Shown: piece by piece, positions 574 through 41,570 of the stretch | How positions within the stretch are numbered: the stretch's first letter is position 1 | Layout of the letters: each line of letters begins with the position of its first letter | Assembly (NCBI GenBank): GCA_000961585.1 | Contig: LADN01000023.1 | Location: 62,001-126,000 of the forward strand | Source: Peptococcaceae bacterium BRH_c4a | GTDB taxonomy: Bacteria > Bacillota > Desulfotomaculia > Desulfotomaculales > Desulfocucumaceae | Length of the DNA stretch: 64,000 nucleotides | Direction: 5' to 3' | Notes under the pieces: model-generated | What the model saw: only the letters and a program-made list of their open reading frames with translations | Told to the model about the DNA's origin: nothing | Database searches by the model: none | Translations under genes and position numbers: made by a program

Positions 574-648
574 GGCGACATAGCCAAGTGGTAAGGCAGA
601 GGACTGCAAATCCTCCACTCCCCGGTTCAAATCCGGGTGTCGCCTCCA
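574..648 (+). tRNA. tRNA-Cys (GCA), integration site of the genomic island
   Basis: A 75-nt cloverleaf with encoded CCA. The acceptor GGCGACA pairs with TGTCGCC, the anticodon loop CTGCAAA gives GCA, and the discriminator base is T (U73), the usual cysteine identity base. Its last 46 bp (603-648) are repeated exactly at 28309-28354, and an integrase C-terminal remnant abuts its 3' end. This is the classical arrangement of an element that integrates into the 3' end of a tRNA gene and regenerates it. The terminator expected after the cluster is not here but beyond the right repeat. Confidence 0.95.
603..648 (+). repeat. attL: 46-bp direct repeat inside tRNA-Cys
   Basis: Identical over 46 bp to 28309-28354. 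It covers the anticodon arm through CCA of tRNA-Cys. Identity stops on both sides (602 G versus A; 649 A versus G), which defines the recombination core. Confidence 0.9.
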
Positions 649-40128: not shown

Positions 40129-40157
40129 TTTATACACACAGGCTTTTGATGTATTAT
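40129..40157 (+). promoter_or_regulatory. Promoter of the Sec-type tRNA / yedE / tusA unit
   Basis: TTTATA (40129-40134) and TATTAT (40152-40157) are 17 bp apart. The predicted start site falls at or just before the tRNA 5' end at 40163. Confidence 0.5.
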
Positions 40158-40162
40158 TGAGT

Positions 40163-40259
40163 GGGGAGAAAGGGGGTGGTCCCTCTCACGGGCTGCAAAC
40201 CCGCTGGCCTGTCCGTGACCCGGGCGGGAGTCCGGTTCGATTCCGACTTCTCCCCTCCA
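40163..40259 (+). tRNA. Selenocysteine-tRNA-like tRNA with a Cys (GCA) anticodon
   Basis: 97 nt including encoded CCA. The acceptor is 8 bp (GGGGAGAA / TTCTCCCC), as in bacterial tRNA-Sec. A D arm of up to 6 bp encloses a 4-nt loop TGGT (40177-40180), also Sec-like. The anticodon loop CTGCAAA (40193-40199) gives GCA at 40195-40197, not TCA. A long variable arm follows (GCCTG / CGGGC, 9-nt loop). The T arm GTC-c-GG / CCGAC has a TTCGATT loop and one bulged C. The discriminator is T; U73 plus GCA are cysteine identity elements, whereas tRNA-Sec normally has G73 for SerRS. It is therefore a Sec-type body with Cys identity. It lies 26 bp before yedE, linking it to selenium or sulfur metabolism. 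Confidence 0.8.
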
Positions 40260-40285
40260 GAATATCAGATACCGGAGGTTGATCT

Positions 40286-41374
40286 ATGAAAAACAAAAAA
40301 GTATTGGTGGCGGTGACAGGAGGGGTTTTGGGAATACTGGCGATACTGCTGGTGAAAATGGGAAACCCCGCCAACATGGGGTACTGCATAGCTTGTTTCC
40401 TGAGGGACATAAGCGGAGGGCTGGGTTTTCACAGGGCGGAAATTGTTCAGTACATGAGGCCGGAAATTTTCGGACTGATATCAGGGGCATTTTTGGCGGC
40501 CTTTCTTTCCAAAGAGCATAAATCCGTTGGAGGATCCAGCCCTTTTATCCGTTTCACACTGGCGTTTGCCGGAATGATTGGCATGCTGGTATTTCTGGGT
40601 TGCCCCGTGAGGGCTGTGCTGCGCCTGGCAGGCGGGGACTGGAATGCCGGAGTGGGTATACTGGGGCTGATTGCGGGGGTTGTCATAGGTATTCAGTTTT
40701 TAAACAAGGGTTTTTCACTGGGAAGGGCAAGCGGCATGCAAAGCGTCAATGGATACATATTCCCGGTAATGGCAGTGGCTATATTGGTTTTATTGGTTTT
40801 TGGCACTTCTTTTTTCTTTAGCAGCAAAAGCGGCCCCGGTTCAATGCACGCTCCTGTTATAATTTCTTCAGCGGCCGGGATAGCAGTGGGAGCTCTGGCC
40901 CAGCGGTCCCGCTTTTGTATGATAGGGGGCATCAGGGATTTCATCCTGTTCAGGGACACTCATCTTTTAATTGGATTTATCGCTCTGCTGGTGATTGCCT
41001 TTCTGGGTAACCTTACCGTGGGAGCTTTTAAGCCGGGCTTCGCAGGCCAGCCAATAGCCCACACCGACGGAATCTGGAACTTTCTCGGGATGCTGCTGGC
41101 GGGAGCCTCGGCCACCATGCTGGGCGGCTGCCCGTTAAGACAGCTAATCGCCGCCAGCGAGGGGAATACCGATTGTGTGATTACAATTGTTGGCTTTATC
41201 GCAGGGGCAGCCTTCGCACACAACTTCGGACTGGCCGCCAGCGCCAAGGGTGTTTCTTTTGCCGGGCAGACGGCCACGTTAGTGGGTATTTTGATTGTAT
41301 TTACAATAGGATTTTTAGGAACATACCGTCAGACTTCATATTCGGGAGGCACCAGTTATGGACAAAATGGTTGA
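40286..41374 (+). CDS. yedE: YedE-family selenium/sulfur transporter
   Basis: 362 residues with about ten hydrophobic segments and the paired YeeE/YedE signature loops: MGYCIACFLRDI, LGCPVRAVLRLAGGDWNAG, QRSRFCMIGGIRDF and GGCPLRQLIAASEGN. The conserved cysteines line the channel in the thiosulfate transporter YeeE. The selenium-linked subgroup of this family occurs with a TusA-like YedF partner, as here (overlap of 17 bp with the tusA-like gene). Predicted to import a reduced selenium or sulfur oxyanion. Its start is 26 bp after the unusual Sec-type tRNA. Confidence 0.88.
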   Translation: MKNKKVLVAVTGGVLGILAILLVKMGNPANMGYCIACFLRDISGGLGFHRAEIVQYMRPEIFGLISGAFLAAFLSKEHKSVGGSSPFIRFTLAFAGMIGMLVFLGCPVRAVLRLAGGDWNAGVGILGLIAGVVIGIQFLNKGFSLGRASGMQSVNGYIFPVMAVAILVLLVFGTSFFFSSKSGPGSMHAPVIISSAAGIAVGALAQRSRFCMIGGIRDFILFRDTHLLIGFIALLVIAFLGNLTVGAFKPGFAGQPIAHTDGIWNFLGMLLAGASATMLGGCPLRQLIAASEGNTDCVITIVGFIAGAAFAHNFGLAASAKGVSFAGQTATLVGILIVFTIGFLGTYRQTSYSGGTSYGQNG

Positions 41375-41570
41375 TGCCCGGGGCTTACTTTGCCCGGAGC
41401 CTGTGTTATTGACAAAGAGAGTCATAGATAAACTTACTGATGGAACTGTTAAGGTAATTGTGGACAATAATGCGGCAAAGGAAAATGTCACCCGTCTTTC
41501 AGAAAATCTGGGGTGGACGGTAAGCATTAGCCCGGAAGGAAAGGATTATGTGCTGACTATTACGAAATAA
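41358..41570 (+). CDS. TusA/YedF-family sulfur (selenium) carrier protein
   Basis: 70 residues with the TusA motif DARGLLCPEPVLLTKR; Cys12 in CPxP is the persulfide or selenide-carrying residue. The rest follows the two-helix, four-strand TusA fold (DGTVKVIVDNNAAKENVTR). It overlaps the end of yedE and probably receives the imported sulfur or selenium species. The C-terminal DsrE-like domain of full-length YedF is absent. Confidence 0.88.
   Translation: MDKMVDARGLLCPEPVLLTKRVIDKLTDGTVKVIVDNNAAKENVTRLSENLGWTVSISPEGKDYVLTITK

What the first reader, a model, noticed from the sequence alone, without database searches (positions are those of the whole stretch)
40163..40259. Selenocysteine-type tRNA with a cysteine anticodon and cysteine discriminator, next to yedE and a tusA-like gene
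The fold is that of tRNA-Sec (8-bp acceptor, 4-nt D loop, long variable arm), but the anticodon is GCA and base 73 is U. Those are the main cysteinyl-tRNA synthetase determinants and are wrong for SerRS/SelA. Sec-like tRNAs with sense anticodons have been reported in metagenome surveys, some reading Cys codons. The position 26 bp before a selenium/sulfur transporter and a persulfide carrier suggests a Cys-charged tRNA used for recoding, or as a substrate or sensor in sulfur-selenium trafficking. The bulged C in the T stem is an extra oddity.
Basis: partly seen in the sequence, partly recalled or inferred. Interest (0 to 1): 0.9.

Follow-up and report, generated by a model that had tools for sequence, protein, structure and literature searches.

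The report
Cysteine tRNA that mimics selenocysteine tRNA
This is a cysteine-carrying tRNA built like the tRNA for selenocysteine, sitting at the head of a selenium-transport operon; it belongs to a known family whose tested member puts cysteine in at selenocysteine UGA codons, and what looks new here is how often the family is tied to selenium genes.

Summary
At 40163-40259 (+) lies a tRNA with a tRNA-Sec fold, anticodon GCA and U73, 26 nt before yedE and a tusA-like gene. It is a conserved RNA: compensatory changes across 35 relatives far exceed controls. The genome also has a normal UCA tRNA-Sec, a normal tRNA-Cys, one SelB and one CysRS.

It is a member of the known selC*/tRNA-ReC family. 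[quoted passage not shown]

Added here: 44 of 87 loci in Bacillota, Nitrospirota, Planctomycetota and Deltaproteobacteria have a selenium gene within 2.5 kb, against 7 at 2.5-5 kb; yedE 18 against 0. All 26 carriers in a phylum sample have SelB, against 263 of 398 overall. Its T-stem base G49:C65/U50:A64 is that of tRNA-Sec (79/83 and 31/34; elongators 11/70).

Best explanation: a Cys-charged, SelB-delivered fallback for Sec UGA codons, expressed with selenium-supply genes. Recoding is inferred from the relative; co-regulation is untested.

The parts
40163..40259 (+). selC*-type (tRNA-ReC-like) tRNA-Cys gene, CCA encoded, U73 at 40256
   Evidence: ARAGORN, Rfam RF01852, family model R1 98.4 bits, covariation
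40163..40170 (+). acceptor stem 5' strand, 8 bp with 40248-40255
   Evidence: sequence; all 8 pairs show double-sided changes in relatives
40172..40185 (+). D arm: 5-bp stem (40172-40176 / 40181-40185), 4-nt loop TGGT at 40177-40180
   Evidence: sequence, covariation
40195..40197 (+). anticodon GCA (loop CTGCAAA 40193-40199)
   Evidence: GCA in 85 of 87 loci
40208..40228 (+). long variable arm: 8-bp stem 40208-40215 / 40221-40228
   Evidence: sequence, double-sided changes in all 8 pairs
40230..40247 (+). T arm GTCCGG-TTCGATT-CCGAC: 5 bp with a bulged C (40232 or 40233); base pairs G49:C65 and U50:A64 shared with tRNA-Sec
40129..40157 (+). sigma-70-like promoter TTTATA-17-TATTAT ending 5 nt before the tRNA
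   Evidence: number of sites not above shuffles; -10-like boxes at a similar place before many relatives
40274..40278 (+). Shine-Dalgarno-like GGAGG before yedE
   Evidence: sequence
40286..41374 (+). yedE, putative selenium transporter
   Evidence: TIGR04112 seleno_YedE 487.6 bits, cut-off 200
41358..41570 (+). tusA-like gene (resembles the N-terminal domain of YedF), overlaps yedE by 17 nt
   Evidence: Pfam TusA 67.2 bits; TIGR03527 60.7 bits over its first third, below the cut-off of 110
574..648 (+). canonical 7/5 tRNA-Cys (GCA) of the same genome

Best explanation
It is a selC*-type tRNA-Cys (tRNA-ReC-like). The host CysRS charges it with cysteine through U73 and the GCA anticodon. Its long acceptor/T arm, like that of tRNA-Sec, makes it cargo for SelB rather than EF-Tu. 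SelB takes it to SECIS-marked Sec UGA codons, where GCA mispairs with UGA and cysteine replaces selenocysteine: a fallback that keeps selenoprotein mRNAs translated when selenium runs short. Being first in the operon with yedE and the tusA-like gene, it is made together with the selenium supply genes. Shown here: the RNA and its fold, its identity elements, the presence of one SelB, one CysRS, a true tRNA-Sec and UGA-containing selD genes in the same genome, the recurrent linkage to selenium genes, and the T-stem signature shared with tRNA-Sec. Reported for a relative: SelB instead of EF-Tu, UGA read as Cys. Inferred: charging and recoding by this very tRNA, operon co-transcription, and the fallback purpose.
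For: Fold and covariation. GCA in 85/87 and U73 in 85/87 loci. The same genome has tRNA-Sec UCA, one SelB, one CysRS and two selD genes with one in-frame TGA each. 26 of 26 carriers in a 398-genome phylum sample have SelB, against 263 of 398 overall. Selenium genes within 2.5 kb in 44/87 loci, 7/87 at 2.5-5 kb; yedE 18 against 0; three upstream LysR genes pass LysR_Sec_metab, one downstream gene is full YedF. T-stem G49:C65/U50:A64: 79/83 members, 31/34 tRNA-Sec, 11/70 elongators; the four exceptions are the delta-type 8/4 tRNAs, three of them next to their own selB. Review PMC11415595: D. [quoted passage not shown] review PMC7609411 describes the family.
Against: No expression, charging or mass-spectrometry data for this tRNA. 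GCA does not pair with UGA by standard rules, so recoding by this member rests on the relative. The shared T-stem signature may reflect descent from selC rather than SelB binding. About half of the loci have no recognised selenium gene within 2.5 kb, and several are followed by tRNA-Lys, so the link to selenium genes is not obligatory. The number of promoter-like matches is no higher than in shuffles.
Confidence: 0.78

Rival explanations
1. A supernumerary Cys isoacceptor that reads ordinary UGC/UGU codons through EF-Tu; the Sec-like shape is an evolutionary relic of its origin from selC.
For: GCA anticodon in 85/87 loci; some copies in tandem with tRNA-Lys (CTT) 9-22 nt downstream, as in ordinary tRNA operons.
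Against: The 13-nt acceptor/T strand and the T-stem signature stay as in tRNA-Sec across phyla; all 26 carriers in the sample have SelB; the review says the D. nigrificans relative does not interact with EF-Tu.
Confidence: 0.1
2. A regulatory tRNA: as the 5' part of the yedE-tusA transcript its processing or charging state tunes expression of the selenium supply genes.
For: A promoter-like site ends 5 nt before the tRNA and no terminator-like site was found between tRNA and yedE; yedE follows within about 50 nt on the same strand in most yedE-linked loci.
Against: The tRNA is as conserved where yedE is not next to it; in some genomes it precedes tRNA-Lys instead; own-family genomes G004 and G006 keep yedE-tusA with no match to the tRNA model in the stretch.
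Confidence: 0.06
3. A tRNA-Sec with a Cys anticodon (serylated, converted by SelA) that places selenocysteine at UGC/UGU codons, as described for Aeromonas salmonicida.
For: Sec-type fold over the Rfam cut-off; the Aeromonas type exists (PMC11415595).
Against: U73 in place of the G73 seen in the tRNA-Sec genes of the same genomes; a normal UCA tRNA-Sec is present; D stem of 5 bp rather than 6.
Confidence: 0.03
4. A decaying copy without function.
For: A relic of such a tRNA lies before yedE in G041 (26.5 bits), so decay occurs.
Against: This copy is intact: 98.4 bits to the family model, all identity elements kept, conserved in the genus with yedE and tusA downstream.
Confidence: 0.02

Closest known systems
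tRNA-ReC: D. [quoted passage not shown] 2018, RNA Biol; read only as cited in PMC11415595; the name ReC is from memory)
   Same: tRNA-Sec-like fold, GCA anticodon, Cys identity; same kind of host (Desulfotomaculum-type Clostridia).
   Different: Different species and sequence; this member heads a yedE-tusA operon. No experiment on this member.
selC* tRNA-Cys family (Mukai et al. 2017, NAR; read only through review PMC7609411)
   Same: U73, Cys anticodon, 8-bp acceptor, long variable arm, bulge in the T stem, anaerobic Firmicutes among the hosts.
   Different: The review defines it by a modified 8/4 structure with A51a bulge; this one has 8 + 5 bp with a bulged C. No selB* or cysS* here.
tRNA-Sec (selC)
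   Same: 8-bp acceptor, 4-nt D loop, long variable arm, T stem starting G49:C65/U50:A64.
   Different: Anticodon GCA instead of UCA, U73 instead of G73, D stem 5 bp, bulged T stem.
Selenium gene neighbourhoods of Lin et al. 2015 (PMC5322559): YedE, YedF, LysR_Se, DUF3343
   Same: The protein genes beside these tRNAs are of these same families (YedE, YedF/TusA, LysR_Sec, SelD).
   Different: No such tRNA-Cys turned up in the passages of that paper that were searched.

Membership tests
selC*/tRNA-ReC tRNA-Cys | tRNA-Sec-like fold (8-bp acceptor, long variable arm, 4-nt D loop) | tested here: met
   RF01852 51.6 bits over cut-off 47; R1 98.4 bits; covariation
selC*/tRNA-ReC tRNA-Cys | Cys identity elements: U73 and GCA anticodon | tested here: met
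   family-wide 85/87 each
selC*/tRNA-ReC tRNA-Cys | co-exists with a canonical tRNA-Sec and SelB | tested here: met
selC*/tRNA-ReC tRNA-Cys | modified 8/4 arm with unpaired A51a, as the review PMC7609411 words it | tested here: inconclusive
   Here 8/5 with a bulged C; 78 of 83 members have the 13-nt strand, and the 8/4 form with bulged A occurs in the four delta-type members. Whether the primary paper counts the 8/5 form in could not be read.
selC*/tRNA-ReC tRNA-Cys | cysteinylated by CysRS, bound by SelB and not EF-Tu, inserts Cys at Sec UGA | not testable with these tools
   Reported for the D. nigrificans relative (SelB, not EF-Tu; UGA as Cys) in PMC11415595
tRNA-Sec | UCA anticodon and G73 | tested here: not met
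   GCA and U73; the genome's true tRNA-Sec is elsewhere
canonical tRNA-Cys | 7/5 arm, short variable loop | tested here: not met
   8/5 arm and 8-bp variable arm; the genome's canonical tRNA-Cys is at 574-648
selC* with selB*/cysS* operon (delta-proteobacterial type) | second selB or cysS in the genome | tested here: not met
   one SelB and one CysRS over the cut-offs

The most novel reading that the evidence does not exclude
The Cys-for-Sec fallback tRNA is a regular component of selenium-supply operons across phyla, with the Se transporter, carrier and selenium LysR regulator, so that cysteine recoding of Sec codons is switched together with selenium uptake. This linkage was not found in the texts that could be read.
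Probability: 0.4. Interest if true: 0.65.

Novelty: new member of a known kind. Interest (0 to 1): 0.45.

Why it matters
Why bacteria keep a tRNA that puts cysteine in place of selenocysteine is not settled in what I could read. Repeated placement with yedE, yedF/tusA, selD, selB and a selenium LysR regulator suggests selenium status as the trigger and gives cultured hosts in which to test it (for example Desulfoscipio geothermicus with a copy beside yedE, or Carboxydothermus islandicus with one beside the double-cubane pair). The T-stem base shared with tRNA-Sec also makes a testable prediction: one elongation factor for both.

Tried and rejected
Phage or plasmid origin: no match in phage and plasmid collections; the 50 pattern matches in viral contigs were weak or other kinds of sequence when inspected by eye (list partly cut) and were not pursued. 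A second SelB or CysRS as partner: not in this genome. A single-sequence fold of the tRNA gives a wrong anticodon arm at -47 kcal/mol, so the structure rests on covariation. The primary papers (Mukai 2017; Vargas-Rodriguez 2018) are not held and were read only through reviews. A first neighbour count by predicted ORFs missed genes and was replaced by tblastn.

Full report
Check. The window holds a tRNA at 40163-40259 (+). ARAGORN calls it tRNA-Cys (GCA); Rfam scores the same stretch as tRNA-Sec, 51.6 bits over the gathering score of 47. The sequence gives an 8-bp acceptor, a 5-bp D stem with the 4-nt loop TGGT, the loop CTGCAAA, an 8-bp variable arm, a 5-bp T stem with one bulged C, U73 and an encoded CCA. 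yedE starts 26 nt downstream (TIGR04112, 487.6 bits), and a tusA-like gene overlaps its end. The same genome holds a normal UCA tRNA-Sec (74 bits), a normal tRNA-Cys at 574-648, one SelB, one CysRS and two selD genes each with one in-frame TGA.

It is a family. After structural filtering and removal of duplicates, 87 loci were kept. An alignment of 35 members gives 90.3% paired cells, 178 cells changed on both sides against 55.5 (sd 6.6) in shuffles, and 16-58 with partners slid; the alignment was made by sequence, but the structure was written from these sequences, so the paired percentage leans towards it. A covariance model from it scores members 85-104 bits, tRNA-Sec 55-69 and ordinary tRNAs under 30 (training members included). 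Of 87 loci 85 have GCA and 85 have U73; 79 have all 8 acceptor pairs.

Neighbourhood. tblastn with reference selenium proteins finds at least one of YedE, TusA/YedF, SelD, SelB, LysR, the double-cubane protein or its activase within 2.5 kb in 44 of 87 loci, and at 2.5-5 kb in 7; among 46 loci with both flanks complete, 21 against 3. YedE: 18 near, none far, mostly 20-50 nt downstream on the same strand. Three of the upstream LysR proteins pass NF040786 LysR_Sec_metab (296, 260 and 312 bits, cut-off 250), a Nitrospirae neighbour is full YedF (TIGR03527, 206.7 bits), and the downstream pair in Carboxydothermus is double_cubane plus an activase. YedE, YedF and LysR_Se are the selenium genes of Lin et al. 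2015 (PMC5322559). The loci are related to each other, so the counts are not independent events; but the linkage appears in Bacillota families of several kinds, in Nitrospirota (TusA/YedF, LysR), in a Planctomycetota MAG (L087) and, as selB, in Deltaproteobacteria and a Nitrospira MAG.

SelB. In 398 genomes of the phylum, 26 carry a match of 79 bits or more to the family model, and all 26 have SelB over the cut-off, against 263 of 398 overall; without regard to kinship chance would give about 2e-5 by a simple power (my arithmetic). In members of the order, tRNA-Sec and this tRNA differ in much of the acceptor stem but share the 13-nt 3' strand and the T-stem base G49:C65/U50:A64. Over all sequences held: 79 of 83 members, 31 of 34 tRNA-Sec, 11 of 70 elongator tRNAs. 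The four exceptions have the 8/4 form with a bulged A; three of the four lie 19-32 nt before a selB gene. Shared ancestry with selC could also explain the sharing.

Known. Review PMC7609411 describes selC* tRNA-Cys of Mukai et al. 2017: tRNA-Sec-like, U73, GCA (some UCA), in anaerobic Firmicutes, Thermodesulfobacteria, Nitrospirae and Proteobacteria. [quoted passage not shown] The title of the experiment (Vargas-Rodriguez et al. 2018) is in its reference list and in that of PMC8762117. From memory, that paper named the group tRNA-ReC and proposed a safeguard role; I could not read it. A SelB-like archaeal protein that binds Cys-tRNA-Cys is a further precedent (PMC4329189).

Verdict. The tRNA is a new member of a known kind. 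Its mechanism is best taken from the tested relative: Cys charging, SelB delivery, Cys at Sec UGA codons. Whether the linkage has been published I could not determine.

Noticed in passing
L227:5001-5097 (G057:C58) and L292:4923-5021 (G041): Beside yedE in G057 the copy has anticodon ACA in place of GCA, while the genome's other copy has GCA; in G041 a degraded relic with the loop CTACAAA lies before yedE and an intact copy lies elsewhere.
   Followed up: partly
L237:5001-5096 (G037): A family member with anticodon TCA and A73: a possible reversion towards Sec or opal decoding (from memory, a Pelotomaculum lineage with such a change, tRNA-ReU, has been published).
   Followed up: no
L126, L211, L217, L223 (9-22 nt downstream): In several Desulfotomaculum-type genomes the tRNA is directly followed by tRNA-Lys (CTT), in L209 276 nt downstream.
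   Followed up: no
L221, 3 nt downstream of the tRNA: ARAGORN reports a tRNA with a four-letter anticodon (ggcg), perhaps an 8-nt anticodon loop; in L146 an odd one (tt).
   Followed up: no
L282 (+21), L126, L145, L216, L217 (+22 to +153), L209 (+405): A small protein of about 70-79 aa without a known family follows the tRNA in several genomes.
   Followed up: partly
L088/L341, L150/L338, L339 (Cloacimonadota): In three Cloacimonadota genomes the only tRNA-Sec-like gene over the cut-off has anticodon GCA, and its 3' end resembles tRNA-Sec rather than tRNA-Cys; two of them have SelB. Selenocysteine at Cys codons is possible. A fourth (L337, L348) has both UCA and GCA forms.
   Followed up: partly
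L077, L085, L094, L102, L139 (Bacillota MAGs): A second, divergent group with GCA and U73 on a Sec-like fold, in four of five genomes beside a separate UCA tRNA-Sec: perhaps an independent origin of the same kind.
   Followed up: partly
L285, L287, L288, L291 and others: Relatives with yedE and tusA but no match to the tRNA model in the stretch: gain or loss at the same operon within the order.
   Followed up: partly
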